Part shown: in pieces, positions 8,295 through 25,978 of the stretch
Numbering within the stretch: the stretch's first letter is position 1
How the letters are laid out: each line of letters opens with the position of its first letter
Source: a virus
Length of the DNA: 26,007 nt
Strand: one strand, 5' to 3'
Virus record (IMG/VR): IMGVR_UViG_3300035187_000415
Span: 1-26,007 of that record
Position numbers and translations under genes: made by a program
Notes under the pieces: model-generated
The model's input: only the letters and a program-made list of their open reading frames with translations
Database searches by the model: none
What the model was told of the DNA's origin: nothing

Positions 8295-9500
8295 ATGTCT
8301 ATTCCGCAGGACCAACTCCTGCTACTTGCCCGTGCCTTGTCAGGCAAGGGCAACGTAAGCAGTGGCGATATCAGCACGTTGCTTTCGCCTGAGTTGGGTT
8401 ATCTGACTGGGACGTTTTATGGTGGGCAGGATGCTGAGCAGGCTGCGCAGGATGACGAGTTGTTGTGGATGGATTATGCGCCTAATTTTCGTAAGGCGTT
8501 GACTCTTCCTGATACGGACATTCGCAAGATTATTGCTGCCGAGATTTATCGTGGTGCTGCTCCTTGGGATGTGAAGCGTCAGATTGAGGAGTATACGGCT
8601 GGTCAGGCTGATTTGTCGCCCGGGTTGATTAATCAGGAGGGTGAGACAAAAGATTTGCAATCTTTTGCGAACACAGTGTTCAGTGAGTACAACAACTATC
8701 AGGTTGCCAAGAAGAAGGCTGACCGTACTGCTGCGGGTAAGGACCCGTTTGTTGCTGGCGGTATTCCTTCTCCTGAGATGGATTTTGCTCCTGAGCAGTT
8801 GGCTCCTGAGTTGTTTGAAAATTTGGCTAAGGAGTCTGCGGCTCGTGGTGCTGAGTCAAAGAAGTTTCAGCAGCGTGGTAAGAGTCGTTCTGCTGCGTTG
8901 GAGTTTTTGAGCAGGGGCAAGAGTTTTAATCCTGCTACCGAAAAACTTCCAACGTATGAGGATGCGAATTATTTTGATTGGGCTTCTGGTGGGACTGGTC
9001 TTCAGGATGAGCAGGCGAATTTCGCTAAGCAGGTTGAGGGGTATCAGAAGGAATACATGAAGCGTGTGGACATACTGAATCGGGTTAAGAGGGGTGGGTG
9101 GAAGAGGTTGTTTCCGGAACTTCGTTCTGAGCAGGAGGCTCTTGCAGCAGCACAGAGGGGTGTTGACGTTTACAAGAAGCAGTTTGATACTGCGTTTGAG
9201 GCAGCGAAAACCAAGTTGGGTATGTATACGCCTGAAAAGATTGTTAATCCGAGTCAGAAAGATAATTCGTTTCAGCGTGCAGAGGACATTCGTTTTGGGC
9301 GTACGGCTCAGCAGGTTGTTGACCGTAGTGAGAACGTTGGTAAGGATATTGTTGAGTCAGCCCGAAAAGAAAAGTGGTTGCAGGATTTTAATTCTGCATT
9401 GGGGATGCTTGTGCAAGCGAAGGCTCGTGGTGCTGGTTATACGCCGTACCAAGAGACGTTGACTGCACGTTCTAATTTCTTGCGGGCTGGTGGGATGTAG
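8295..9500 (+). CDS. helical virion-module protein (possible internal core protein)
   Basis: 401 residues, with an AAGGG site before ATG. Globular helical N-terminal half (residues ~1-120, including 'LPDTDIRKIIAAEIYRGAAP'). A Pro-rich linker follows (~145-165, GGIPSPEMDFAPEQLAPELF), then a Lys/Glu-rich helical C-terminal half with a predicted coiled coil (~250-320). No signal peptide, transmembrane helix or catalytic motif. Its TAG stop shares its last base with the GTG start of the giant gene, so both are probably made together. Part of the four-gene block 6747-18628 that I interpret as the internal or ejection protein set. Family not recognised. Confidence 0.6.
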   Translation: MSIPQDQLLLLARALSGKGNVSSGDISTLLSPELGYLTGTFYGGQDAEQAAQDDELLWMDYAPNFRKALTLPDTDIRKIIAAEIYRGAAPWDVKRQIEEYTAGQADLSPGLINQEGETKDLQSFANTVFSEYNNYQVAKKKADRTAAGKDPFVAGGIPSPEMDFAPEQLAPELFENLAKESAARGAESKKFQQRGKSRSAALEFLSRGKSFNPATEKLPTYEDANYFDWASGGTGLQDEQANFAKQVEGYQKEYMKRVDILNRVKRGGWKRLFPELRSEQEALAAAQRGVDVYKKQFDTAFEAAKTKLGMYTPEKIVNPSQKDNSFQRAEDIRFGRTAQQVVDRSENVGKDIVESARKEKWLQDFNSALGMLVQAKARGAGYTPYQETLTARSNFLRAGGM

Positions 9501-12500
9501 TGGCTGTTGACCCGAACCTTGATGAACTGTTGGCGAGGCTGGCAAACGTAAAGAGTTTGCCTGCGCCTTCGCAACCGTTCCGTACTGCTGAGGCTGCTGC
9601 TGGTTCTCAGGCTCGTGATGCTGCTGGTCGTGCGTTTGCGGCTACGCCTCGTTTGGGTGATGCGATTAAGGGTATTCAGCAGGGTGGTGTTGCTCAGACT
9701 GGTGCGAAGGGTACGTTGGCTCGTGTGTTGGGTTCGCCACTTGGGAAAGTGGCGTTGGGTGGTTTGAACATTATTGACATGCCTCGGCGTGCGATTATTT
9801 CTGGTTTGAAAGAAACTGTTGATTTGCTTGACAAGGACCCAAATACGAAGGCTTCGTTTGGGGATTTGCGTACACAGTTTAATGACCCAACTTTTGGTTT
9901 TGGTCGTGTTATGCCGATGGATGGTTGGAAGGGTCGTATTGTTGGTTTCATTGGTGATGTTGTTCTTGACCCGACAACGTATTTGACGTTGGGTGCTGCT
10001 GTGCCTGTGAAGGCGATTGCTCGTGGTGCTGGTGCTGCTGGGTTGCGTGCAACAGCCAAGGTTGGTGCGCAGGATGTTGCGTTGCGTGCTGCGTTGGGTA
10101 CGAAGAATGTTTCTGGTCGTGAGGGTCGGTTCGCTTTGGCGAACCTTGTGAAACAGTATGGTGGTAATGCTGACGAAATTGCTGCTGTTGCTTCTCGTGG
10201 CAAATCTGCTGTGCCTGATGACATTGCGAAGGTTATGGGTTTGCAGCGTAACGGTTTGTACATGTTTGGTTCTCGTGTACGTTTGCCGGGTTCTGGTGCT
10301 ATTGGTGGTGCGCTTGAGTCTGGTTTGATTAAGACACGTTTGGGTATTACGAACACAAACGTGGGTAAGAAGTTGCAGTATTTGTATACGCCGAGGGGTG
10401 CTTCGGGTACTCAGGGTGACGTAAGTAAGATGCGTGCAGATTTTGCTTCGGGTCGTGTGCCGAAAGAAAAAGTCGGCATGTATATGGCTGCTCTTGGTGG
10501 TTCGGAGAATGGTCGTCGTCGTGGTGCTTCGTATGGTCAACAGTATTTGCGTGATGCTCGTGCTGTTGCGATTCTTGATTCTGTGTCGCAGTTTGATGAC
10601 CAGATTCATCGTTTTATTGAATCTGCTGACCCGGGTTTGTTGTCGCCAGCGCAGCGTGAAGCGACGCAGGCTGTGCAGGACCATTGGGAGAAGGTTCGTA
10701 TTTTGTTGGAAACTGAGGGGCAGAGAATTGACCCTAGTTTCAGGTTGAATGTTGGTGCGATTGACCAGATTACGGGTCGTCCACGATACATGCCGCACAT
10801 TCAAACTGCTGAGGCGTACCGTTGGCGTCAACGGAACGCTACAAATCCGTGGTCACAGTTGTTGGATAGAGCAACGAGCGTTGATGTGTTGGACATGAAC
10901 AACAACCTTGCTGCACGATACTTTAAACAGGGTCAAAAGTTTTTGGATACGGAAGATGTCATCAAGACTGGTTCGATTGATGAGATTAACGCCTTGTGGC
11001 GCAAGCACACAAAACTTGATTTTGATTTGTTTGAAACAAGCACGTCACGTATTTTGGCTGGTTATGAGCAAACTGTTCGTGGTGCGTTTGAAGCGTTTAC
11101 ATTGCTTGACGAATTGAAGGACGCTGACTTTGTTCGCATGTTGCGCACACAGGGGGAGATTGACCCAGATTATTTAAAGGCGTTGGAAAATTTGGCGACA
11201 AGTAAGGCGAAGAATGTTGCTGATTTGACTTCTTCTGCTCGTTATGCCGCCGATGAGTTGGTGAAAGTTGTTCAGCAAACTTTTGATACGAACTATCGTC
11301 GTTCTATTGCTTCTTCTGTGAGGGGCGAGATTTTGGATGTTCGTGCTGAGGTTCGTGCGGGTGAGCGTGCTGTGGCTGATGCTGCTGAGGCTGGTTCTCG
11401 TGCGACTGCGTTGTCTAAGCAGTTGACTGATTTGTCTGCCAAGCAACAGGCTGAGGCTGTTGCGTTGGCTGCGATGTTTGAAGAAAAGAACGCTGTGATG
11501 ATGTTTATGAACGATGCTTTGACTCGTTCACATGACGAGGCAGTTGATTTGGCTCGCCAAGCAGACCAGATGAATGAGATGATTGCTGCTCGTGTTGTGA
11601 CCGCTGAGCAGGCTGAGGCGGCGTTTGAGGCTTTCAAACAGAAAGCCAAGGACGCTGACGAAGCGTTGAGGCGTTCTGAGGAGACGTTGAACTATTACCG
11701 TTTGTATGGTGACGAGTTGGGTCCTGCTTTGCAGAGTATTTATGAGCGTATCCGTTTGGCTGATTCAACGAGCGATGGTGTGTTGGATGAACCTGCTGTG
11801 TATCGGATGTTGGAATCTGACATTGAGGAAGGTCTTTTTTCTGGTGATGAGCGTGTAAACAGGGTTCTCAACATTTTGATGCGTCCGTTTGACAACACTC
11901 CGTTTGCCAGTAGCACCGATTTGGGTCAAGGGTGGTTGAGTGATGCGTTGAACTCTATTGGTGATACCGGCAAGTTGTTGAACAGCATCCCCGACATGGG
12001 TGCGCCGAAAGGTAATCGTGCGACTCGTGCGAACATGGCTCGTGCTGGTAAAAGCAATAAACGAAAGTTGACTGGTGCGCAAGTTAACGACATTATTGGT
12101 CGTGGTGCAACTGTGGGCGATAACCATGCTGAGATGGCTGATGCTTTCTTCTTTATGACCGCACGCGAATTGCGTGCAGTCAATGATGCTTACGGTGGTG
12201 GGGCTGCTGGGTTGGCTGCGCAGGATGCGCTAGCCAAAGAGTTGCTGGAGGGTACTTCTGAGCGTGCAAAGGTTTGGCGTGAGGCTCGTATTGCTGTTCA
12301 ATATGTAAAAGAGCAGATGGACATTATTCGTGAGATTGGTTCAATGCGAAACCAACGTGGTGGCAGGTTTGCTGACAGTTCTGAAACGATTGCTCGTATC
12401 GCGGAAATTCAAGACAAGATAGACAACTTGGAATTTGCGATACCAGATTTGGCGCTTACTGCGTACTATCGTGCCAAGGAGTCGGTTGATACGTTTAAGG

Positions 12501-15500
12501 GTGCTCCGGGTCTTGTTGCGACACCGCAGTATTCTGCTGACATGTTTGAGCGTTTGAATGTGCTTGTCAACAATTTGGCTATTGCTCGTCCAGAGTTGCA
12601 GAGCGGCATCGCTGGTTTTCAAGATGTTATTCAGCAGACAAGACAAAGAATTGAAGGCGGTTTGATTCCACAGGTTGATGGTGTCAAACAGTTGTTTGAC
12701 CAGATTGACGAGTTTGTTCGCAAGCAGTTTACGAACGAAGATGAACTTCGTCGTTTGACTGCTGTGAAAGCAGAGTTGGAAAAGAACGCTGATGCTGCGT
12801 TGAAGGTTGATAAACGGTTTACGGAAGTTTCTACTGACGTTCTTGAATCAACTAAGGATGCTGGCATAAAGTTGGCTAACTATCACATTCTTCATGCGAC
12901 CCGCCTTGCTGTGGATGCTATTGCTGCGTTGACTCCTAGTGGTACTGCGCCCAGTGAGGCGCTGTTTGCGTTTGCTCGTTCTGGTGCTGCACGTCAACAG
13001 TTGAAGCATTTGACAGATTTCCAGCATACGGTGTTTACTGCCAACGAGGTGATGGAGAAGATTCGTACACAGGTGTTTGGTGGTGTTGAGGTTGCTGGTG
13101 ATGTGAAAGTTGCTGGTGACAGGATTCGTTCTACGAGGGTTGCTGACCGTGCGCTTGTGTTGCGTCAGGCTGTGCAGAATCTTTCTGATGATGAACGTGA
13201 AGCGCTGTATGCGGTTGTTGGTGATTTGAGTTATGTAGAGAAGCAGATTTCTATTGGAACGAAGATGGAGGTGGCCCGTAGGACCACCCCAGAGTATGCG
13301 CAGGCTCGTGACCGTGTGTGGGCTGTTGAGGCTGGTAATCCGGATTGGCGTGGTCAGATTGAGTTGGATATTCCAAGTTATGTTCGTACTCCTTCTCGTG
13401 CTCGTACTTATCAGTATGCGGATGATGCGTCAAGGTTTGAGACGGATGTTTCTGAAGGTGTCGTGGAGTCTGTTGATGCGCAGGTTAAGGCTGCGCAGAA
13501 TCGTATTAACCGAATGGAGAATGCAACGCCTCAAGCGTTGAATAAAGAAATTGACCGTCTTGTTGAGGTTGGCAAACTAACTTCTAGCGAGGCTGAGGAT
13601 TTGCGTCTCGCCGTACAGCAGGGCGAAGAGGCCGCAAAGCGTACACAGAAGGTTGCTCGTGAGCGTGCTGGGGCTACTGGTAAGGGTGAGCGTGCTGCTC
13701 GTCAGCGTGCTCGTGGTGTGTTGCGTTCTGGTGATGAGACGTTTGGTATGAGTCGTGCGTTTTGGATTGCGACAAGAACCAATGCTGATGGTTCCACGTT
13801 GAGTAATCAACGTGTGGTTGATTTCTTTACGATGGTGTTTGGTGATGGTGAGATTCGTGTTTCTAATAGCGGTGGTTTTAAACGTCCATCAAATGTTGTT
13901 GGTGGTGATGAAATTGGTTTCCGTGAGGAAACAACAAGAGTAATCAATGCTGCGAAAGCAGAAAAACAGAAAGCAAAGGCTGAGTTGCCTGCTGGTTTGA
14001 GCAAGGATGCTAAGGAAGAGGCGTTGCGCAACATAGAACTGAACTATTGGCGTACGTTGGGGAATCAAGAAAACGCTTTGGTTGATATTAGGGCTGTTGA
14101 AAGAATTTTGTCAGACATTGAAAAGACGAAGGTTGAGATTCGTTTCTTGAAAGCGGACGCAAGGAATGCGCCTATTGGGACTTTTAAGCGTCAAAGTTCT
14201 GCTTCTGCTGCTGCTCGTGCTGAAGCAAAACTGAAGTCGTTGCGTGGACAGTTGGGCGCTCTTGAGCGTGAGGCTACACAGTTGGTGCAGCGTGGGACTA
14301 GCAGCCCAGCGGCAACATACAAATATATTTCTGTTGGGGAATCTGTTTTGGGTAAGGCTGGTGCTCGTACACGTGCACGTATTGAGGCTTTGCGTACGTT
14401 GGCTCGTGACCCCGAGGCTGGTGAAGCGTTTAGTTTGGCTACTGGTGTTGAGCGCAATGAGGTGTTGACTGGGACGTTTGGTTACGTGGAGTTTTTGCGT
14501 GGTCGTGCGAATGAGTTGCAGGCTGCTTATGATGCGACGCAGAGAACTGCTGCGGAGTTGAAGAAGGTTGAGGACAGGATTGGTCGGGCTTCTGCTGTTC
14601 GCAAGCAGGGTGTTGATGAGGCTGAGCAGATTGCTGCAAGTCCGAAGATGCAGCAGCGTTTGGATGCGGCAATCAATGTTGTGTCCGATGATGAGCAGGT
14701 TCGCAATAAGGCGACTAGCCAGTTGTTGCGTTCTAAGCAGTGGACTGCAAAGGAAGCACCTTTGCCTCCACGTGTGGCGAAGATTGTGAATGAGCAGGAG
14801 CAGATTAAGCGTCAGATTTTGGCGATTGAGAAAACTCCTGAGTATACGACTGCTGTTGAGCGTGAGTTCCGTCATAAGGTTTTGATGGGTTTGGCTCGGT
14901 TGGATTTGTCCGACCCGAACATCCGTTTCCCCGAGGAAACGTTCACAGAGCAAACTCTTGGTGCGTTGAGCAGGTTTGCTTCTCGTGGTCCGGGTGTAGC
15001 AGAGCAACTTGATGGCGGCGCCGTTCAAGTATTTGATATGGCGGAAGTTTCTTTGGAGGATGTCGCCAATGATGTGTTGAAGGGTCAAGCATCCAAGTAT
15101 GTGTTTGTTGTTGGCAATCGCAGAATTGGACCTTCTGTTGTTCGCGATGTTCTTGTGAAGAAGAACAATTCCAAGTTCCGTTATGTGGTTGAAAGTTTTG
15201 ATGACGGGTCTGGGAATAAGACTTTCGTGTACAGGGATAAGGGAAATGGTTCTGTACATACTTTCCGTGAGGCTGCGCCAGAGAAGTTTGAACCAAGAGA
15301 AATCGTGTTGGATGAACCGATTTATATTGCCCGACCTGTGTCGGACAATTTGACTTCTATTGAAAAAGATGCTTTGGCTAGAGCGCAAACCGAATACTAT
15401 TCGGCGTTGGAAGGGAACCTGACAACGTTCAAAAAGAGTAGGCAGATAACTGCTGGTAAGAGCGGTGAATCTTTCTATGAACCGACCAGCGCTTATGCGC

Positions 15501-18500
15501 TGTTTGGTTCGCCAACTGGTGAACGTGTGCATCGCATGGACGAGGTGGTTGGTACGTCTAGGTACGCTCGTGGAACGAATCCGCTTGACCCTGCGGTTGT
15601 GTTTGACGAGTCTCAGGGTCGTGGCATTGTTCGCAATTTTGGTTCTTTGTTTGAAGAGCCTGCTTCTCCGACCAGTCAGCGTGGCCGCGAGTTGCGTGCA
15701 CAGGCGAAGGCTAAGCAGGCTGAGCGTGACAAGGTTGCTGTTGAGCACGCTAAACAGTTGGATGCCATGCGTTCTGCTACGACCGAGAAGGCTCGTCGTT
15801 CTGCTCAGTCTCGTGCAGCGAACCTTAGTGACAGGATTAATGCGTTTGATGCAGAGTTGGATGTTTTGGAGAATCGGATTGCGAACTCGAGTCCTGTTAC
15901 TCAGATGATTACCGTTGAGGGTGTTGTTCGTGTTGCGGAGTATTTTAGGAACAATCCTGATTTGTTGCGTCGTTTGGGTGTGCGTATTGATGGCGATGTT
16001 GTGAGCGATGCTGACGTATTGCGTGGTATTGATAAGTATGTTGAGGCGTTGGAGTTCAGGAAACTGAACCCAACGAAGAAGGCACCGAAGCAGAATAAGT
16101 ATGGTGCTTTTAATACTGCTGGTGTTCCAGATGATTCTGCACCTGTTGCGTCTATTTCGGTTGCTGAGGTTAAGCGTCGTCGTAGGACGTTGAATAAGGT
16201 TTTTGATGCTTCTCCGCAAGGCAAGTTGTTGGCTGATGTTCGTGGCAAGAACGCTCGTTTGGCTGCCAATCAGAAAGAGTTGATAACTGTTCGCAACGGT
16301 GGCGAGGGTGCAGAGTTGCTTGCTGCTAAGCGTTCAACTGAGGAAGAATTGGCTAGGGCTGAGCGTAGTTTGAAGTTGAATGAAAAGAATGTTTCCAAGG
16401 CTTTGCGTGAGCAGAAGCCGAAGGTTGAGCCGTTGCCGGGTGAAAGTCTTGCCGACACTGCGTTGCGTGTCGCAAGAGAAGAAGAAACTAGGTTGGCTGC
16501 CAAACCGTTGCAGAGGTTCGGTGAAGCACTTGATGGTCCTGTGGCTGCTCAGGCACGTGCGGATGCTTTTGCTTCTGCCGCTCCAGAGTATGCAACGGCA
16601 ACATGGTTTGATTCTGCTGGAAGAAACATTCCGCAAATCATGGACGGTATCAATGCTGACATTTCTGCACGCAGAAGCATTGTGGAGACGTTGAAGGCAC
16701 GAGAGATTGAGGTCAAGGACCGTATCTCTGTTATCACCAAGATGATTGCTGGTGACAGGGTTCCTGCTAATCAGCGTCAACTTTTGACTGATGAGTTGCG
16801 TTCGTTGAATCTACAACTTCATGGTGTTCCAAGAACACCGAAGCGTGCTGGCGAGAAGGGTTTGAATCAGCAAATTAGCGAGGCGCTGGAACGTATCAAC
16901 GTGTTGCAGAAGCAGCGTAGGACTGTTGAGGCTCAACTGGTTCAGGAGCGTTCTGCTGCCGATGCTGGTTTCTATCTTGAGTTGAATCTGAACGACGCCC
17001 GTAAGCGTCTTGATTTGTTGAATGCGTCGCTGGAAGACATCAAGGGCATTCGTACTCGTGCACGTGTCGGTAAAAAGGATGGTTGGATGGCGGACTTTGA
17101 TGAGTTCGCCGCCGAGGTTTCTGATGTGATGAATCGTTTGAACACGATGCAAGACGGTCCTGACACCCGACGCTTGGCGTCGGTGTTGACTGGCTATTTG
17201 GAAGCACGGGCGAATCTGTTGCGTGGTACTGCGGAGTTGGAAGATGTTGCGCAGATGGAGCGCATGATTGCTTCTGGTCGTGTGTTCGCTGAGGGTGACC
17301 ACATTGTGTTCAAGCAGGTGATGGATGAGGGCTGGATGAAGTTGACTGGTTCTGGTGCGTTGGCTTCGTTTGAGAATTTGCAGATGCGTCCAGAGGTTAC
17401 TGAAATTCTTACGAACATGGGTCGCTTGCGTGACCCAGCGTTCGTCAAGAGCATGCGTGTATGGTTCGGTCCGTACACAAGGTTCTTTAAGGCTTGGGCG
17501 TTGTCCACACCCGGTTACCATGTGCGCAACAGTGTGACTAACGCTTTCATGCTTGTGGCTGCTGGTGGGCGTCCACAGTTCTTGGCTGAGGGTATGCGTG
17601 AATACAACGCTCTATACAACAGTTTGAAGAAGGGAACGTCTATTGACGACTATTTGGCTGATTTGCCTGAGAGTCGCCGTTTGACTGTTTCTCGAGCGTA
17701 TGAGTCAATGCTTGGTTCTGGTGTTGGTCAGTCTGAGGAAATTGCGTTTGATACGGCTGGCGTGTTGACGAACAATCCGATTACTCGTGCCAACAGGCGT
17801 GTGGGTGCGTGGGTTGAGCAGCATTCACGTTTCATGTTGGCGTACGATGGTATTCGTCAAGGTTTGGATGTGAACGGTGCTACTGCTCGTACACGCAAGT
17901 TCTTGTTTGACTACGAAGACATTTCCACTTTGGATGCGTACATGCGCAGCATTGTTCCGTTCTGGATGTGGACGAGCCGTAACTTGCCGTTGACGATTCA
18001 GAACATTTACATGAATCCTCGCCCATACCAGTGGTATCAGAGTGTTCGTCGCAACATTGAGGACCAAGAGAAGACTGAAGGGTTGCCGTTGTACATGCGT
18101 GAGGCTGGCGGGTTTGCGTTGGCTGGCACGAATCTGGCTGCGACACCTGACTTGGGTTTCAACAGGTTGCAGGCTGATGTGAGCATGTTGACTGACCCGA
18201 CACGGTTTGCTGCGAACATCAACCCGTTGTTGCGTGTGCCTGCTGAAACGATGCTGGCAAACAAGTCGTTCTTCCGTAACAGGGAGTTCAATAGGGAACC
18301 GATTGCTGTTGAGGGTCCTGTTGGTACGTTGGCTTCGCTGTTGGGTCAGCCGATTGGTGCTGGTAGTTCTGTGGGCGGTCAACGATTTGTTGATGAGAAG
18401 TTGTTGTATGCGTTGGGGAACTTGGTTCCTACGTTGAATCAGGTGGAACGGTTTGTTCCTTCGCAAGAGTACTATCAGCAGCGTGGTTCTACGAACCCGC

Positions 18501-18628
18501 TGTTGGGTTACTTGGGTGCGCCTGTTCGTGAAGTTACTCCGCAGATGCGCACAAGTGAGCAGCGTCGTATCCTTGCGGAGTTACAGAAACTTGTTGCTGC
18601 TCAACCGAAGGTGGAACCTAATGAGTAA
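9500..18628 (+). CDS. giant virion protein, 3042 residues, LPD38-like C-terminal region
   Basis: GTG start overlapping the previous stop by one base. The frame runs 9.1 kb without interruption. N-terminal region (1-60) is disordered-looking; residues ~143-175 contain a hydrophobic motif GFIGDVVLDPTTYLTLGAAV, possibly membrane-interacting. Several Ala/Glu/Arg/Gln-rich coiled coils follow (about 615-755, 1490-1595, 1665-1695, 2060-2130, 2455-2525). A beta-rich island lies at ~1835-1945. The C-terminal ~380 residues contain WALSTPGYHVRNSVTNAF (~2665) and IVPFWMWTSRNLPLTIQN (~2818-2835), a pattern I associate with the LPD38 region of phage polyvalent/virion proteins. I infer an ejected internal virion or scaffold-like protein, as with T7 gp16 or N4 vRNAP by position. 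I looked for T7-type RNA polymerase motifs and saw none. No catalytic residues are assigned. Confidence 0.8.
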   Translation: MAVDPNLDELLARLANVKSLPAPSQPFRTAEAAAGSQARDAAGRAFAATPRLGDAIKGIQQGGVAQTGAKGTLARVLGSPLGKVALGGLNIIDMPRRAIISGLKETVDLLDKDPNTKASFGDLRTQFNDPTFGFGRVMPMDGWKGRIVGFIGDVVLDPTTYLTLGAAVPVKAIARGAGAAGLRATAKVGAQDVALRAALGTKNVSGREGRFALANLVKQYGGNADEIAAVASRGKSAVPDDIAKVMGLQRNGLYMFGSRVRLPGSGAIGGALESGLIKTRLGITNTNVGKKLQYLYTPRGASGTQGDVSKMRADFASGRVPKEKVGMYMAALGGSENGRRRGASYGQQYLRDARAVAILDSVSQFDDQIHRFIESADPGLLSPAQREATQAVQDHWEKVRILLETEGQRIDPSFRLNVGAIDQITGRPRYMPHIQTAEAYRWRQRNATNPWSQLLDRATSVDVLDMNNNLAARYFKQGQKFLDTEDVIKTGSIDEINALWRKHTKLDFDLFETSTSRILAGYEQTVRGAFEAFTLLDELKDADFVRMLRTQGEIDPDYLKALENLATSKAKNVADLTSSARYAADELVKVVQQTFDTNYRRSIASSVRGEILDVRAEVRAGERAVADAAEAGSRATALSKQLTDLSAKQQAEAVALAAMFEEKNAVMMFMNDALTRSHDEAVDLARQADQMNEMIAARVVTAEQAEAAFEAFKQKAKDADEALRRSEETLNYYRLYGDELGPALQSIYERIRLADSTSDGVLDEPAVYRMLESDIEEGLFSGDERVNRVLNILMRPFDNTPFASSTDLGQGWLSDALNSIGDTGKLLNSIPDMGAPKGNRATRANMARAGKSNKRKLTGAQVNDIIGRGATVGDNHAEMADAFFFMTARELRAVNDAYGGGAAGLAAQDALAKELLEGTSERAKVWREARIAVQYVKEQMDIIREIGSMRNQRGGRFADSSETIARIAEIQDKIDNLEFAIPDLALTAYYRAKESVDTFKGAPGLVATPQYSADMFERLNVLVNNLAIARPELQSGIAGFQDVIQQTRQRIEGGLIPQVDGVKQLFDQIDEFVRKQFTNEDELRRLTAVKAELEKNADAALKVDKRFTEVSTDVLESTKDAGIKLANYHILHATRLAVDAIAALTPSGTAPSEALFAFARSGAARQQLKHLTDFQHTVFTANEVMEKIRTQVFGGVEVAGDVKVAGDRIRSTRVADRALVLRQAVQNLSDDEREALYAVVGDLSYVEKQISIGTKMEVARRTTPEYAQARDRVWAVEAGNPDWRGQIELDIPSYVRTPSRARTYQYADDASRFETDVSEGVVESVDAQVKAAQNRINRMENATPQALNKEIDRLVEVGKLTSSEAEDLRLAVQQGEEAAKRTQKVARERAGATGKGERAARQRARGVLRSGDETFGMSRAFWIATRTNADGSTLSNQRVVDFFTMVFGDGEIRVSNSGGFKRPSNVVGGDEIGFREETTRVINAAKAEKQKAKAELPAGLSKDAKEEALRNIELNYWRTLGNQENALVDIRAVERILSDIEKTKVEIRFLKADARNAPIGTFKRQSSASAAARAEAKLKSLRGQLGALEREATQLVQRGTSSPAATYKYISVGESVLGKAGARTRARIEALRTLARDPEAGEAFSLATGVERNEVLTGTFGYVEFLRGRANELQAAYDATQRTAAELKKVEDRIGRASAVRKQGVDEAEQIAASPKMQQRLDAAINVVSDDEQVRNKATSQLLRSKQWTAKEAPLPPRVAKIVNEQEQIKRQILAIEKTPEYTTAVEREFRHKVLMGLARLDLSDPNIRFPEETFTEQTLGALSRFASRGPGVAEQLDGGAVQVFDMAEVSLEDVANDVLKGQASKYVFVVGNRRIGPSVVRDVLVKKNNSKFRYVVESFDDGSGNKTFVYRDKGNGSVHTFREAAPEKFEPREIVLDEPIYIARPVSDNLTSIEKDALARAQTEYYSALEGNLTTFKKSRQITAGKSGESFYEPTSAYALFGSPTGERVHRMDEVVGTSRYARGTNPLDPAVVFDESQGRGIVRNFGSLFEEPASPTSQRGRELRAQAKAKQAERDKVAVEHAKQLDAMRSATTEKARRSAQSRAANLSDRINAFDAELDVLENRIANSSPVTQMITVEGVVRVAEYFRNNPDLLRRLGVRIDGDVVSDADVLRGIDKYVEALEFRKLNPTKKAPKQNKYGAFNTAGVPDDSAPVASISVAEVKRRRRTLNKVFDASPQGKLLADVRGKNARLAANQKELITVRNGGEGAELLAAKRSTEEELARAERSLKLNEKNVSKALREQKPKVEPLPGESLADTALRVAREEETRLAAKPLQRFGEALDGPVAAQARADAFASAAPEYATATWFDSAGRNIPQIMDGINADISARRSIVETLKAREIEVKDRISVITKMIAGDRVPANQRQLLTDELRSLNLQLHGVPRTPKRAGEKGLNQQISEALERINVLQKQRRTVEAQLVQERSAADAGFYLELNLNDARKRLDLLNASLEDIKGIRTRARVGKKDGWMADFDEFAAEVSDVMNRLNTMQDGPDTRRLASVLTGYLEARANLLRGTAELEDVAQMERMIASGRVFAEGDHIVFKQVMDEGWMKLTGSGALASFENLQMRPEVTEILTNMGRLRDPAFVKSMRVWFGPYTRFFKAWALSTPGYHVRNSVTNAFMLVAAGGRPQFLAEGMREYNALYNSLKKGTSIDDYLADLPESRRLTVSRAYESMLGSGVGQSEEIAFDTAGVLTNNPITRANRRVGAWVEQHSRFMLAYDGIRQGLDVNGATARTRKFLFDYEDISTLDAYMRSIVPFWMWTSRNLPLTIQNIYMNPRPYQWYQSVRRNIEDQEKTEGLPLYMREAGGFALAGTNLAATPDLGFNRLQADVSMLTDPTRFAANINPLLRVPAETMLANKSFFRNREFNREPIAVEGPVGTLASLLGQPIGAGSSVGGQRFVDEKLLYALGNLVPTLNQVERFVPSQEYYQQRGSTNPLLGYLGAPVREVTPQMRTSEQRRILAELQKLVAAQPKVEPNE

Positions 18629-19413: not shown

Positions 19414-19676
19414 TCGTCTTCTCCTTCTAGGTGGTTTTTCATGTTGGAGATGAGGTGGTCTACGAACGACGAGATACGCAGCCATGCGTATACGTCGCCA
19501 TCGGTTGCTCTGTCCCAAGTTTTACAGATGTCAATTACATCTTCTTTGGTTGCGCTCATCATGAGCGTGATGATTGTGTTGGAGTTTTGTTCAATGCTTT
19601 CAAGTTTGGCATCCATGTTGTCTGCTTCTTTTTTGGGCATGAACTCGTAAATCCAATCGCCGTTATCTGTGGACAC
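19410..19676 (-). CDS. small acidic protein, unknown
   Basis: 88 residues if the GTG at 19676 is used; that codon follows AGAAGGAAG with six-base spacing and overlaps the upstream gene by 14 nt. An ATG at 19727 (AAAGGAA upstream) would give 105 residues but a 65-nt overlap. The protein is acidic at its C terminus (HLEGEDE) and helical, with hydrophobic positions in MDAKLESIEQNSNTIITLMM and AWLRISSFVDHLISNMKNHL. The stop overlaps the next start (ATGA). No family is recognised. It belongs to a set of three small genes ending the leftward operon. Confidence 0.55.
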   Translation of the reverse strand: MSTDNGDWIYEFMPKKEADNMDAKLESIEQNSNTIITLMMSATKEDVIDICKTWDRATDGDVYAWLRISSFVDHLISNMKNHLEGEDE

Positions 19677-19842
19677 GAGTCTTCCTTCTTTCGTTATGAA
19701 TGTAGACGCTGTTTTCTGGTAGTCCATTGACTGTGATTCCTTTGCCCATCTCAACGTCATCAAAATGCGCAGTAAGTATTTGGACAATCGTTTCCACATG
19801 GACTGCTTTATCAAACCCGATTGTTATTTGCCGATATGCCAT
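19663..19842 (-). CDS. 59-residue unknown protein
   Basis: ATG 19842 follows GGGAG by seven bases, and the start lies 32 nt inside the 3' end of the sigma4/Nmad1 gene. The sequence MAYRQITIGFDKAVHVETIV reads like a small alpha/beta protein, followed by 'QILTAHFDDVEMGKGITVNG' and a basic tail with RRKTRVHR. No cysteine, no transmembrane segment. I do not recognise it. The upstream in-frame ATGs at 19878 and 19875 have no good ribosome-binding site. Confidence 0.5.
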   Translation of the reverse strand: MAYRQITIGFDKAVHVETIVQILTAHFDDVEMGKGITVNGLPENSVYIHNERRKTRVHR

Positions 19843-20686
19843 ACTCTTCTCCCAACGAAAGTTTGAACGTGTCATCAAGAACCATCAACGCGACTACACA
19901 GTAGCCGATGATGTCGTGCAGCGTATCAGCAATTGTTTCGTTGACGAGTGGCGCAACAGCGCCACCGTCCTCAAGGAAATCTTTCGTGAACTGCAAGTTC
20001 GTTAGACGCTCATACTTGTCGGTAAGGCGAACAACGATGCCCTTCAAACCGAAACGGGTGATGTTCTTGTGACCGTAATCGTGTTGCTTGCACGCAAGCA
20101 GACGAGCCATCTCTGCTGAATCCCACCAGTCATGTGCACGCAAATAAGACACCACAGGCAAAGCAATGGCACTGAATGCTTCAGGGTTCGGCTCAAGGTT
20201 GTTGTGGAATGTGATGCCGATAAGCGCATCTATCCTGTCGTGCAACGCAGCGAAATCTATTTTGTTGTTTGGTTTCGCCAACGAGCCGAGGTGCGTACAC
20301 CACTGTGTTGCTGACTGGTCCCATGTTGTAGCCATTTCGTATCTCCTTCTGAGTGTGACGCTCATCGTCAACGCTTCTTTGAGTTTATCATACGCCGTGT
20401 TACGAAGGCGCATGGTGTGAACATCGGAGTAGCCAAGTAACTCTCCTGCTTCTCGCAAAGACAAACCTTCATACATCAGTAGTTGGATTGTTTTGCGATA
20501 TTTGTTTGGCAACGATTGAACTGCTTCGGCTACCGCCTCACGCAGTTCTAACAGTTCATCGGCAGAAGGCATCGGGTCTTGACCCGGTGCCGTAATCATG
20601 AGTGCTTCCATTTCCGACGATGGTCGTCGGCGTGACTGCAACTTCTCAAACACCTCCCCAGCGAACAGGACGTGTTTTCTAGCCAT
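19811..20686 (-). CDS. sigma-70 region 4-like HTH fused to Nmad1-like (DUF1599) domain
   Basis: 291 residues, two parts in one frame. Residues ~46-105 (LREAVAEAVQSLPNKYRKTI then QLLMYEGLSLREAGELLGYS and MRLRNTAYDKLKEAL) form a helix-turn-helix of sigma-factor region 4 type, which contacts promoter -35 DNA; regions 2 and 3 are absent. Residues ~118-280 match what I recall of the Nmad1/DUF1599 family: K200-x2-DYG (~200-205), RFGLKGIVVRLTDKYERL (~211-228) and NETIADTLHDIIGYCVVALM (~249-268), with acidic positions E250, D254 and D258. That family is linked to nucleotide or DNA-base metabolism in phages. Met118 (ATG at 20335) is preceded by an ideal ribosome-binding site, so a separate 174-residue Nmad1 protein is likely made as well. 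The 20686 start has only a weak site. Fusion versus two products is unsettled. Confidence 0.7.
   Translation of the reverse strand: MARKHVLFAGEVFEKLQSRRRPSSEMEALMITAPGQDPMPSADELLELREAVAEAVQSLPNKYRKTIQLLMYEGLSLREAGELLGYSDVHTMRLRNTAYDKLKEALTMSVTLRRRYEMATTWDQSATQWCTHLGSLAKPNNKIDFAALHDRIDALIGITFHNNLEPNPEAFSAIALPVVSYLRAHDWWDSAEMARLLACKQHDYGHKNITRFGLKGIVVRLTDKYERLTNLQFTKDFLEDGGAVAPLVNETIADTLHDIIGYCVVALMVLDDTFKLSLGEEYGISANNNRV
20333..20350 (-). promoter_or_regulatory. internal ribosome-binding site and ATG for a separate Nmad1 protein
   Basis: On the minus strand AGAAGGAGATACGAA lies directly before ATG 20335-20333, inside the sigma4/Nmad1 frame. The SD core AAGGAG with 7-base spacing is as good as any start in the window. 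It forces the codons AGA-AGG-AGA (Arg-Arg-Arg), which are scarce among the CGT-type Arg codons used elsewhere, so the stretch looks selected as a translation signal rather than as protein. The product from here would span 19811-20335, 174 residues. Confidence 0.7.
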
Positions 20687-21110
20687 CGTAAGCCGAGTCG
20701 TAAAGAAGTTCTGCGACGTTCTCAGGTTTCAGTAGGTAACCCCATGCTGGGTTGTCTGAGCGACGAGCGAAGTCTCGTGTCTCTAATGTTTCACGGTTGG
20801 AGTCAATGTAACGCTTCAAGCGGTCTACGGACACAATGACGAAGCCACCGTCCATTGAGAAGATGTACACCCACCATTGTGCTTTGGTGACTTGCAACCC
20901 TGACGGTATCCACTTGCCGCATTTGCGTGGGTTCTGACGCATCTCCACTGCCATGTTGCCGTTGCGGTAGCGGTCTGACTTCACTTCAAAGGAGCCCTCA
21001 ACGAGAGACTCCAACATTTTGCGTATCCGTTTCTCGCCCAGTTGACCGTACTTGAGGTCTTCTGCAAAGTTGAATGTGTTCTTTTCAATATCCCATTTAC
21101 TGTTCTTCAC
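20679..21110 (-). CDS. PD-(D/E)XK-type nuclease-like protein
   Basis: 143 residues from GTG 21110, which follows GGGAG by eight bases and overlaps the upstream gene by 14 nt. The open frame extends to 21212, but that part is antisense-free reading of the small upstream gene in another frame and is not needed. Key residues: GEKRI with E26, then a strand-like FEVKSDRYRNGNMAVEMRQN (residues 41-60) containing E42-V-K44, D46 and E56, then GKWIPSGLQVTKAQWWVYIF (65-84). This E-x-K with a downstream SG-x-x-x-T-K-A-x-W-W pattern is what I recall of small phage restriction-like nucleases. Possible roles are recombination or DNA processing alongside RusA. Its stop overlaps the sigma4 start by 8 nt. Confidence 0.6.
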   Translation of the reverse strand: MKNSKWDIEKNTFNFAEDLKYGQLGEKRIRKMLESLVEGSFEVKSDRYRNGNMAVEMRQNPRKCGKWIPSGLQVTKAQWWVYIFSMDGGFVIVSVDRLKRYIDSNRETLETRDFARRSDNPAWGYLLKPENVAELLYDSAYDG

Positions 21111-21267
21111 TAAGAATCTCCCATGATGCCTGCGAGAAGCCTCGCACTTTTCCGTCTGGTTGTATGTACACCCATTGCGGGGCATCAGGGTCACAGTTGC
21201 ATCCTGTGACATTGCGTTTATCGTGAACGATTATTTGTTGGCAGTTGTTGCATCTTACTTTGGTCAT
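21097..21267 (-). CDS. 56-residue Cys-rich (zinc ribbon-like) protein
   Basis: ATG 21267 overlaps the RusA stop (ATGA) and the TAA stop is at 21099-21097. The product begins MTKVRCNNCQQIIVHDKRNV and contains C6-x2-C9 and C23-x-C25, a four-cysteine arrangement fitting a small zinc-binding knuckle, followed by a conserved-looking stretch PDAPQWVYIQPDGKVRGFSQ and SWEILSEEQ. The QWVYIQPDG-type ending resembles small uncharacterised phage proteins I have seen described only as hypothetical. Perfect coupling to both neighbours makes it a real gene. A DNA- or nuclease-partner role is possible from context but unproven. Confidence 0.7.
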   Translation of the reverse strand: MTKVRCNNCQQIIVHDKRNVTGCNCDPDAPQWVYIQPDGKVRGFSQASWEILSEEQ

Positions 21268-21611
21268 AGTTTTTTCACCGTCAATTCAATGATTTGCTTG
21301 TCATCTTCCCACGCTACACCGTTCAGCCCATCAAGGATGGACTTCACGTAATTATCTACGTCGCCTTTCAACGAAGATTTGTGGTCGGGGTTTTTGGTGG
21401 CGGTCACAGTGATGGTGGTGCCTTTGAGTGTGAACACGAGTGACACTTCTATGGTGTGGGATGCATCAAACATCGGGCCGGTATACGCCTTGGCGACAGC
21501 CTTCTCGTAGTCGGCTGTTCGTTTCGGTGTGTAGACGTGACCTGTGCGTGTGGCTCGTGGACGTTCCTTGGCTAAGGGTCGCAGTGGAATGAACTGTTTG
21601 TGTTTCTTCAC
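21264..21611 (-). CDS. rusA: RusA-family Holliday junction resolvase
   Basis: 115 residues, the family's normal size. GTG start at 21611 overlaps the primase stop (GTGA). RusA dimers cut four-way DNA junctions with Mg2+. Signature segments: N-terminal PLAKERPRATRTGHVYTPKR (residues ~12-31), and the catalytic block KGDVDNYVKSILDGLNG (~82-98) followed by VAWEDDKQI (99-107). The conserved acidic residues are D84, D86, D94, D103 and D104, and K90 follows the usual pattern. In this operon it would resolve replication or recombination intermediates and clear branches before packaging. It sits with helicase, primase and a Cas4/RecB-like nuclease. Confidence 0.9.
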   Translation of the reverse strand: MKKHKQFIPLRPLAKERPRATRTGHVYTPKRTADYEKAVAKAYTGPMFDASHTIEVSLVFTLKGTTITVTATKNPDHKSSLKGDVDNYVKSILDGLNGVAWEDDKQIIELTVKKL

Positions 21612-22480
21612 GAGTCGTAAACTTTCATCACCATTGCTTCAAGGTGCATGATGCCATCTTCACGGTCATGGAACTTGCCCCACTTCTTGTCTGCTTCAAT
21701 CAGCATCGTCAAAGTTTCTGCTGGTAGCAGACCGTCTGAACGCAGACGGTATGCGAGACGAATCAGTGTGGTGGAACGGTCAGAACCTTCGAGCGGTCCT
21801 TGCGACATGATTGTGTACGAGTATGGGCTAATCATGTAGCGCAGTTCACCGAGCGACATCGGTTTGCCTGAACGCATCACCGTGTTTTTGGGGGTGGGCG
21901 GAACCCATAGTTCTGCTACATGGGCAATCAAATCGGGTTCAACACGCCCTGAATACGCTTGCTCAACGAAATCTTGGAGTGACATCGTGGTGTCATGTTG
22001 GTTGAGCATGATGCGTTCGGTTGGCTGGTTTTCCCAGCCACCGAAGTACGGGAGGCGAACATAGTTGCCGTAGCCGTTGGACACAGATTCCTGTTTGGGG
22101 TTCACTTCTTTGGCTGGGTATTCGCACACTTTGTGTGCTGCTAGTAGGCAACGACGCATCGTTGCTGCTGGTACAGGTTCAGTGGCGAACACCCACAGGT
22201 GGTAGCCACGACGAGTACGTTCAATCCAAGAGTGAATGTTCTTGACCGACAGTGCGGTGCGCAGGTTGTGCACAGCATCCAAATCGGGGACGTCAATGTC
22301 TGAGCATCCCCAACGAGTCATGTTGTGTTCGTTCACAGGGTAGATGCCCATGCCGATGTCACCTAGCAGGTGGGACATGAACAGGTCTTGGGTGACTGGT
22401 TTTTTGACGCAGCCACCTTCCCATGAACCGTATGCGTCTGTGCGCCCCGAGAATAGTTCTATGAATTTAGAAAGCGCCAT
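21608..22480 (-). CDS. archaeo-eukaryotic-type (AEP) DNA primase
   Basis: 290 residues from ATG 22480, which has GGAG upstream and overlaps the helicase 3' end by 14 nt; the open frame upstream to 22573 lies in the helicase gene. AEP signatures are present: CSDIDVPDLD (D61, D63, metal-binding h-h-D-x-D), WIERTRRGYHLWVF (residues 85-98, with H94 of the s-x-H motif), and a helical segment after it. C-terminal residues ~225-288 (SDRSTTLIRLAYRLRSDGLL onward) resemble a PriCT-type helical extension. Primases of this kind make the primers for replication. Immediate neighbours are a RecA-fold helicase and RusA. No polymerase gene is seen in the window, so the host enzyme or one outside may be used. 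Confidence 0.8.
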   Translation of the reverse strand: MALSKFIELFSGRTDAYGSWEGGCVKKPVTQDLFMSHLLGDIGMGIYPVNEHNMTRWGCSDIDVPDLDAVHNLRTALSVKNIHSWIERTRRGYHLWVFATEPVPAATMRRCLLAAHKVCEYPAKEVNPKQESVSNGYGNYVRLPYFGGWENQPTERIMLNQHDTTMSLQDFVEQAYSGRVEPDLIAHVAELWVPPTPKNTVMRSGKPMSLGELRYMISPYSYTIMSQGPLEGSDRSTTLIRLAYRLRSDGLLPAETLTMLIEADKKWGKFHDREDGIMHLEAMVMKVYDS

Positions 22481-23516
22481 GATTGACACGCTCCAAATGT
22501 TGCGACGGTAACTCTGCGTTACGCAACGCACGCAACCTTCCTGTGTGCAAATCAAGTTCGTAGTCAATGTCATCTACGAGCGAACCGCCCGGACGTTTGT
22601 TCTTCAACAATGACAAGGTGACGGTGAACTCGTGGATGGTCAACAGGTAGCGCAGTTCATCTAAACGTTCTTGTGCACGTTCCGAGTGTGAGCGGTCAAG
22701 TTTCTCAACTATCTCGTTCATCTCTGACATGATTTGGAACTTCTTGCGACGCACACCGATGATGCTGGTTGCTTGCTGTTCACCACCGTATGAACCTGAT
22801 GACATGGTGAGTTTGGCTCCGTCCGCACCTGCGGTGCGTGACGTTTGATGCAACACGAGCAACGGCACATCGTGGCGACGACCAAACGATTTCAGGAACG
22901 TCGCTTTGTCGGGAACCGTTTCGCCTGCTTCCACAAGGTCAAGGTAGTCAACGACCACAAGTTCTGGTGCTTGACCCCACACGTCGCACAGTTCGTGGTA
23001 TGCACGTTCCATGTCGGATGCAGACAGGGGTTGGTCAAACACAGCAAGGTTCGGATAGTGGTCTACTGCTGTTGAACGAAGAAGGCTGATTGCTTCTTGG
23101 TCATCGGCAGCGACTCGTGCTTCCAGTTCCCGTGCAGGGATGCCGTGTTGGATGCAGGTGAGTTTGGTGAGAACCAACTGTCGTGGTTCGTCGGGGATGA
23201 ATAGTGCGATGTGCTTTTCGCGGTTGTGACGCAACATGTGCAACAACGCAAGGGTCTTACCGCCGTGAGCGAAACCGAGCATCACTGTCATTTCGCCGGG
23301 TGCTATGCCACGCATTTCTTCATCTATTTGGGGGACACCCAAGTGGATGCGTTCATGTGTTGCTTGCGCCCAACGGACAAACGAATCTGCCGCTTCACTC
23401 AAAGGCTCGTACATTCTGTAAGCAGGAGGCTGGTCAACCGCCAGCACAGGAGTGGGAGGGTTCTCCTGTGTGGCGGTATTCCAACGTGCTGCTAAATCGC
23501 CAGCACTGATTCTCAC
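22467..23516 (-). CDS. RecA-fold replicative helicase (DnaB-like C-terminal type)
   Basis: 349 residues. GTG 23516 overlaps the previous stop (GTGA). Walker A is GFAHGGKT at residues 81-88 (K87), Walker B is LVVVDYLDLV at 186-195 (D190), and LLVLHQTSR at ~219-227 follows as the H3-like sensor segment. A short N-terminal region (~1-60) lacks the full DnaB N-terminal domain, so it is a compact helicase like those in many phages. A C-terminal SLLKNKRPGGS segment is the usual DnaB-family Lys/Arg patch. Predicted role: hexameric ATP-driven unwinding at the fork, partnered by the primase next to it. Confidence 0.85.
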   Translation of the reverse strand: MRISAGDLAARWNTATQENPPTPVLAVDQPPAYRMYEPLSEAADSFVRWAQATHERIHLGVPQIDEEMRGIAPGEMTVMLGFAHGGKTLALLHMLRHNREKHIALFIPDEPRQLVLTKLTCIQHGIPARELEARVAADDQEAISLLRSTAVDHYPNLAVFDQPLSASDMERAYHELCDVWGQAPELVVVDYLDLVEAGETVPDKATFLKSFGRRHDVPLLVLHQTSRTAGADGAKLTMSSGSYGGEQQATSIIGVRRKKFQIMSEMNEIVEKLDRSHSERAQERLDELRYLLTIHEFTVTLSLLKNKRPGGSLVDDIDYELDLHTGRLRALRNAELPSQHLERVNHGAF

Positions 23517-25490: not shown

Positions 25491-25710
25491 CATTCACCTC
25501 CATGTCCACGATGTCAGTCAACGCACGCTCAAAGTGCAACTTCGTATGCGTCAACAGTTGATACTCGCTCAACACATCGCCAGCACGATAAGTGCCACGC
25601 ACACGGTCAAGTTTCTTGCCCACTTGGTCAGCGCCAATACTCAACGATTTGACAATCGTGCGTATCTCATCCAATGTCAGTGACAACTTCACGGTGTAAC
25701 GACCAGCCAT
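25462..25710 (-). CDS. 82-residue unknown protein
   Basis: ATG 25710 has AGGGAAG upstream; the start lies 44 nt inside the WhiB gene and the stop lies 29 nt inside the lysozyme gene. The protein is mostly helical with a beta start (RYTVKLSLTLDEIRTIVKSL), a basic middle (GKKLDRVRGTYRAG), then a leucine-containing helix (LLTHTKLHFERALTDIVDME). No cysteine, no membrane helix. I do not recognise the family. Being the second gene after WhiB in a tight operon, an early host-takeover or regulatory role is possible. Confidence 0.6.
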   Translation of the reverse strand: MAGRYTVKLSLTLDEIRTIVKSLSIGADQVGKKLDRVRGTYRAGDVLSEYQLLTHTKLHFERALTDIVDMEVNDANSHDLHS

Positions 25711-25978
25711 GTTCTTCCCTCAACTTTCTTGCTAGATGTTCTGATACATACTGTCCACCCCAAATGCCGATGGAATCAGTGCGACAAGCGTACTCCAAAC
25801 ACTCAGACTGAATCGGGCACACAGAACAATACTGACGTGCCTTGGCAATCTGCTTAGGTGTGATACGCCCCCTGAAATGCAGGTAGTTGGGAAAGAACAC
25901 TTCGGTAGGGACACCTTTGCAGGCAGCCCTAGCGAAGTTCGGTGCTTTATCAACCACGAAACGAAACTGATGTTTCAT
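25667..25978 (-). CDS. WhiB-family Fe-S transcription regulator
   Basis: 103 residues; ATG 25978 follows GGAG by six bases. The four Fe-S cysteines are C20, C51, C54 and C60 (C-x30-C-x2-C-x5-C), and GIWGG at residues 71-75 is the invariant WhiB turn; a basic C-terminal helix (ARKLREEHGWSLHREV) follows. WhiB-like proteins bind a 4Fe-4S cluster and act mainly through region 4 of the primary sigma factor. They are hallmarks of actinobacteria and their phages (for example TM4 WhiB). As the right-most gene seen of the leftward run it is probably expressed early and may turn host or phage promoters on or off. Its promoter would lie at or past the right edge. Confidence 0.93.
   Translation of the reverse strand: MKHQFRFVVDKAPNFARAACKGVPTEVFFPNYLHFRGRITPKQIAKARQYCSVCPIQSECLEYACRTDSIGIWGGQYVSEHLARKLREEHGWSLHREVVTDIG

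What the first reader, a model, noticed from the sequence alone, without database searches (positions are those of the whole stretch)
19811..20686. Sigma-region-4 HTH joined in frame to an Nmad1-like domain, with a perfect ribosome-binding site at the joint
Seen directly: a single frame carries both domains, yet the bases coding Leu-Arg-Arg-Arg-Tyr-Glu before Met118 are an ideal Shine-Dalgarno plus spacer. Just upstream, the +1 frame has two TGA codons (around 20357-20366), so a one-base change would end the HTH protein there. This looks like two genes recently fused by an indel, or a deliberate dual-product locus giving a DNA-bound and a free form of a nucleotide-metabolism protein.
Basis: partly seen in the sequence, partly recalled or inferred. 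Interest (0 to 1): 0.65.

Follow-up and report, generated by a model that had tools for sequence, protein, structure and literature searches.

The report
Phage fusion gene with second start
One phage gene joins a DNA-binding domain to a domain predicted to act in nucleotide modification, and the DNA at the joint is kept almost unchanged in related phages as a second translation start, so the gene probably makes both the joined protein and the second half on its own.

Summary
Window 19811-20686 (minus strand) is one 291-codon frame with a sigma-region-4 HTH (residues ~42-107) and a DUF1599/Nmad1 domain (~119-280). Met118 sits behind AGAAGGAGATACGAA, one of the strongest Shine-Dalgarno (SD) contexts in the window. 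It is neither an indel error nor recent: five other environmental phage contigs (100, 84, 77, 67 and 66% identity) carry the same fusion, all gaps keeping the frame. The three Arg codons forming the SD are AGA AGG AGA in all five distinct sequences tested, while only 1 of 41 other six-fold-degenerate invariant columns is codon-identical. A sister fused clade keeps a GTG start and its SD just as strictly; another fused clade has lost the start codon, and its joint drifts at the normal rate. More distant phages have two separate genes, usually overlapping by 1-32 bases, with the Nmad1 SD inside the 3' end of the HTH gene. Best explanation: an overlapping gene pair whose frames coincide, giving an HTH-Nmad1 fusion plus a free Nmad1 protein. 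Direction (fusion or fission) and number of events are unresolved. The +1 TGA codons are ordinary. Biochemical function is inferred only. New variant of a known kind (in-frame dual-start gene).

The parts
19811..20686 (-). Fused gene, 291 aa: sigma-region-4 HTH + DUF1599/Nmad1
   Evidence: Open frame; Pfam; same fusion in five other contigs
20366..20563 (-). Sigma region 4-like HTH domain (about residues 42-107)
   Evidence: Pfam/NCBIfam sigma models; predicted fold matches solved sigma region 4, target TM about 0.78-0.88 for isolated region 4 chains
20333..20350 (-). Joint: AGA AGG AGA TAC GAA ATG, internal Shine-Dalgarno, spacer and Met118 start; also codes Arg-Arg-Arg-Tyr-Glu-Met
   Evidence: SD energy -9.3; best-conserved 6-codon window, 1 of 288; AGA AGG AGA invariant
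19814..20335 (-). Predicted short product: free Nmad1 protein, 174 aa from Met118
   Evidence: In separate-gene relatives the Nmad1 gene starts at the homologous place; model puts Met118 at the domain boundary
20679..20686 (-). 8-base overlap ATGGCTAG with the upstream gene; start of the long product, no SD of its own
   Evidence: Sequence; SD energy -1.7; ATG at this place kept in relatives

Best explanation
The locus is an in-frame version of an operon pair that related phages carry as two genes: a small sigma-region-4-like DNA-binding protein followed by an Nmad1 (DUF1599) protein. In the two-gene form the pair usually overlaps, and the Nmad1 ribosome-binding site is built into the last codons of the HTH gene. 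Here the two frames coincide, so ribosomes that start at 20686 (probably by coupling to the upstream gene) make a 291-residue HTH-Nmad1 fusion, while ribosomes that bind AGAAGGAG at the joint start at Met118 and make a free 174-residue Nmad1 protein. Selection keeps both the protein frame and the internal start. Likely consequence (inferred): part of the Nmad1 subunits is tethered to DNA or RNA polymerase through the HTH and assembles with free subunits. Shown: anatomy, conservation, two-gene relatives. Inferred: that both proteins are made, their ratio, mixed assembly, biochemical activity, and the direction of the fusion.
For: Same fusion, full length, in five other contigs at 66-100% identity. 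In five distinct sequences Arg113-115 are AGA AGG AGA throughout; elsewhere 1 of 41 six-fold invariant columns is codon-identical (hypergeometric from these counts about 3e-4), and AGA/AGG are 16% of Arg codons in the window. The joint ranks 1 of 288 in nucleotide identity. Natural contrast: in a sister fused clade with a GTG start (12 distinct sequences) the joint is 99% identical against 82% elsewhere and ranks 1 of 277; in a fused clade without a usable start codon (11 distinct) it is unremarkable (78 against 72%; 85 of 283 windows as good). Two-gene relatives: 24 distinct loci with HTH then Nmad1, 23 of them overlapping by 1-32 bases, frame offset 2 in 18, including MW202803.1. Strong internal SD against a nearly absent SD at 20686. 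The domain boundary in the predicted structure falls at Met118.
Against: No translation data for any of these phages. The Fisher test over all six joint codons in the window clade alone is only p = 0.058 because Tyr and Glu vary synonymously; the strong signal is in the SD codons. Some fused relatives have a weak or no internal SD, so the short product is not needed in all lineages. Nmad1 has no solved relative found by sequence, so the idea of mixed oligomers is unsupported by structure.
Confidence: 0.77

Rival explanations
1. Only one product matters: the protein is used only as the fusion, and the purine-rich joint is conserved because the Arg-Arg-Arg-Tyr-Glu linker is needed in the protein.
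For: Basic residues at the joint (LRRRYE, IRKKYD, IRKKVR, IRKAIR) recur across fused relatives, also in those without a start codon. The fused clade without a start codon exists.
Against: The amino acids do not explain the fixed codons AGA AGG AGA; where the start codon is missing the Arg codons vary among CGT, CGC, CGA and AGA.
Confidence: 0.1
2. Nmad1 is made almost only from Met118; the in-frame read-through from the HTH is a tolerated by-product, and the HTH works the same with or without the Nmad1 tail.
For: The internal SD is far stronger than that of the HTH start; in two-gene relatives each protein stands alone.
Against: No stop codon lies in the linker of any of the 27 distinct fused sequences, although a stop there would restore two genes, and one fused clade depends on the fusion because it has no internal start.
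Confidence: 0.09
3. Sequencing or assembly error, or a very recent indel, that joined two separate genes.
For: Separate genes exist in distant relatives.
Against: Five other contigs carry the fusion without a frame-breaking gap, down to 66% identity.
Confidence: 0.01
4. Programmed +1 frameshifting near the TGA CGA TGA releases a free HTH protein.
For: A +1 stop lies 27-33 bases before Met118 and part of it is kept in the five close sequences.
Against: 12 stops in the +1 frame, nothing unusual here; it is kept because Met-Ser/Asn is kept; the GTG clade lacks it (ATGCAC). No slippery site was seen by eye (not tested systematically).
Confidence: 0.03

Closest known systems
Nmad1 / DUF1599 phage proteins (PF07659, PHROG 1485)
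   Same: C-terminal half matches the family; K-Q-H-D-Y-G, N-I, R..DK..R and E...D...D core invariant among 50 relatives
   Different: Usually annotated as a single-domain protein; here fused to a sigma-region-4 HTH. Function of the family is a prediction
Sigma-70 region 4 / ECF sigma -35-binding domain
   Same: Sequence and predicted fold of the HTH
   Different: No region 2, so not a complete sigma factor; fused to Nmad1
In-frame internal-start genes such as type I-D CRISPR cas10d/cas11d (PMC10212523) and bacterial N-terminal proteoforms (PMC11005335)
   Same: One frame, second start, C-terminal part made on its own
   Different: Here two-gene, dual-start fused and start-less fused states of one locus all survive in relatives
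T7 gene 4 (4A/4B primase-helicase; from general knowledge, not tested here)
   Same: Phage gene with an in-frame second start that drops the N-terminal domain
   Different: Different proteins; no homology claimed
Translationally coupled overlapping gene pairs (PMC10666635)
   Same: Two-gene relatives overlap by 1-32 bases; short-distance pairs are enriched for subunits of one complex
   Different: In the window the pair is a single frame
A0A6J5QFU4, uncultured Caudovirales phage (BFVD)
   Same: Predicted structure matches over 279 columns, 40% identity: a deposited fused relative
   Different: Named only after phage phiCTP1 Gp74; the fusion is not noted in that name

Membership tests
DUF1599 / Nmad1 | Pfam PF07659 match above gathering score | tested here: inconclusive
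   Window protein 21.6 bits against 25; homologues L022, L028, L033, L016, L060 pass
DUF1599 / Nmad1 | Role in nucleotide or base modification | not testable with these tools
   Family name only; no modification enzymes recognised among the window proteins scanned
Sigma-70 factor | Region 4 HTH | tested here: met
   Pfam and NCBIfam region 4; fold match to sigma region 4
Sigma-70 factor | Region 2 (core binding and -10 recognition) | tested here: not met
   No region 2 match in the 291 residues; hence not filed as a sigma factor
In-frame dual-start gene | Start codon with SD inside the frame at a domain boundary | tested here: met
In-frame dual-start gene | SD conserved beyond protein constraint | tested here: met
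In-frame dual-start gene | Both proteins detected | not testable with these tools
   Needs ribosome profiling or proteomics

The most novel reading that the evidence does not exclude
The HTH-Nmad1 fusion and the free Nmad1 protein form one mixed complex that places a nucleotide- or base-modifying activity at phage promoters or RNA polymerase, and phages tune the ratio by switching between two-gene, dual-start and single-fusion states of the same locus.
Probability: 0.22. Interest if true: 0.68.

Novelty: new variant of a known kind. Interest (0 to 1): 0.5.

Why it matters
The same locus is caught in three states among related phages: overlapping separate genes, fused with a conserved internal start, and fused without one. 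That makes it a natural experiment on how two-gene operons turn into (or out of) multidomain proteins and on whether an embedded ribosome-binding site is kept. It also links a widespread, uncharacterised phage family (Nmad1) to a sigma-like DNA-binding partner, which gives a concrete handle on its function, and it warns that gene callers will report only the long protein.

Tried and rejected
Assembly error or recent indel: rejected by independent contigs. Meaning of the +1 TGA pair: rejected, ordinary density. RNA structure around the joint: none beyond shuffles (z -0.34). Single fused origin: the best tree needs three changes of state but a single clade of fused proteins is not rejected (AU p 0.32), so I do not claim repeated fusion. 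First structure prediction with 4 sequences was poor (pLDDT 57) and not used. A solved relative of Nmad1: none by sequence, and the full-length fold search returned sigma domains; a MazG-like reading of the invariant acidic residues was considered and left as a guess. DNA-level relatives among isolated phages: none. Genome contigs gave only three Nmad1 relatives without useful host information. Two of the six contigs found by the joint DNA pattern (L007, L009) encode no relative and are chance matches. Papers on Nmad1: no informative one in the library (the paper I remember as defining Nmad domains is not held).

Full report
Observation. On the minus strand, window 19811-20686 is a single open frame of 291 codons. 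Its N-terminal half matches sigma-70 region 4 and its C-terminal half matches DUF1599, 'nucleotide modification associated domain 1'. Most matches for this protein lie just under Pfam's curated cut-offs, but relatives of identical architecture pass both, and the predicted structure (50-sequence alignment, mean pLDDT 82.5, pTM 0.75) places a sigma region 4 fold in residues ~42-107 (fold search against solved structures: target-normalised TM about 0.78-0.88 for isolated region 4 chains, whole-query E-values weak). Met118 lies between the last HTH-side helix and the first Nmad1 helix. It follows CTCAGAAGGAGATACGAA: anti-SD pairing -9.3 kcal/mol; 3 of 168 internal ATGs reach -9.0 or better, and only one of the window's listed gene starts is stronger. 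The frame's first ATG at 20686 has nearly no SD and overlaps the upstream gene by 8 bases (ATGGCTAG), so the long product probably depends on coupling (inference).

Not an artefact, not recent. Five other IMG/VR contigs encode the full fusion: L005 (100%), L012 (84%), L002 (77%), L003 (67%), L004 (66%). L005 is nearly the same phage as the window; the others are clearly diverged. All alignment gaps in the coding sequence keep the frame.

Selection on the internal start. In five distinct sequences (window, L012, L002, L003, L004) the three Arg codons of the joint are AGA AGG AGA without exception. Of 44 invariant six-fold-degenerate columns four are codon-identical: these three and one other. 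AGA and AGG together make 16% of Arg codons in the window's genes. The six joint codons are the best-conserved six-codon stretch of the gene (1 of 288 windows). The plain Fisher test over all joint codons is weaker (p 0.058) because the spacer codons TAC/TAT and GAA/GAG vary, as expected of a spacer.

Natural contrast. A search with the Nmad1 profile returned 80 loci, which I classified, with the window and the earlier loci, by whether an HTH reading frame lies upstream: 27 distinct sequences fused, 24 distinct separate with the HTH gene immediately upstream, the rest without a detectable HTH. A related fused clade has GTG in place of ATG at the joint with AGAAAGAAGG before it; across 12 distinct sequences the joint is 99% identical against 82% elsewhere (1 of 277 windows; Fisher p 0.002). 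A third fused clade has CTA, CTC or GTA at that place and no SD; across 11 distinct sequences its joint is ordinary (78 against 72%; 85 of 283 windows as good), with Arg codons CGT, CGC, CGA and AGA. So the codons are frozen where an ATG or GTG start is there to be used, and drift where it is not. Other fused relatives (L045, L060, L049, L053, L046/L057) also have an ATG at the joint with moderate to strong SD.

Two-gene relatives. In podovirus MW202803.1, which shares the primase and RusA order with the window, the HTH frame ends in TGA 26 bases inside the start of the Nmad1 frame, in a stretch that the record leaves unannotated. In 24 distinct two-gene loci the overlap is 0-32 bases, the Nmad1 SD lies in the HTH coding sequence (for example ...TTC AGG AGA AAA TAT G, coding FRRKYG, in L048), and the frame offset is 2 in 18 of 24. 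The LRRRYE of the window thus corresponds to the C-terminal tail of the separate HTH protein. Relative to these pairs the window differs by a shift of frame in the short stretch around the SD and start. Whether the ancestor was two genes or one is not settled: the best tree of the Nmad1 core needs three changes of state, but one clade of fused proteins is not rejected (p 0.32).

Mechanism. Most likely the locus makes a 291-residue HTH-Nmad1 protein and, from the internal start, a free 174-residue Nmad1 protein. Gene pairs at very short distance are enriched for subunits of one complex (PMC10666635), and internal in-frame starts that release a C-terminal subunit are known, for instance cas11d inside cas10d (PMC10212523) and several bacterial proteoform pairs (PMC11005335). 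By analogy I infer, without direct evidence, that free and tethered Nmad1 subunits assemble together and that the HTH brings part of them to DNA or RNA polymerase. The HTH lacks sigma region 2, so I do not call it a sigma factor. What Nmad1 does chemically remains a prediction; its invariant K-Q-H-D-Y-G, D-K, E, D, D residues suggest a metal-dependent enzyme (inference).

Host. A WhiB-like gene in the window points to an actinobacterial host (inference).

Verdict. The case is a new variant of a known kind, of moderate interest because three states of one locus survive side by side.

Noticed in passing
MW202803.1 16962-18999 (L016:2973-5010): The public podovirus record leaves about 2 kb without any annotated gene, exactly where the HTH and Nmad1 frames and neighbours lie.
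   Followed up: yes
9500-18628 (+): A single 3042-residue frame, about a third of the window, with no PHROG match at 1e-3; perhaps a giant virion protein.
   Followed up: no
20679-21212 (-): 177-residue protein of PHROG 13596 (unknown function) directly upstream; the motif EVKSDRYRNGNMAVEM looks like a PD-(D/E)XK nuclease core (by eye).
   Followed up: no
19663-19842 (-): A small frame overlaps the end of the fused gene by 32 bases and again has its SD (GGGAGAAG) inside the preceding coding sequence.
   Followed up: partly
21608-23516 (-): Archaeo-eukaryotic-type primase next to a DnaB-like helicase; the listed frames overlap by 107 bases, so one start is probably further downstream.
   Followed up: no
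25667-25978 (-): WhiB-like regulator, which suggests an actinobacterial host.
   Followed up: no
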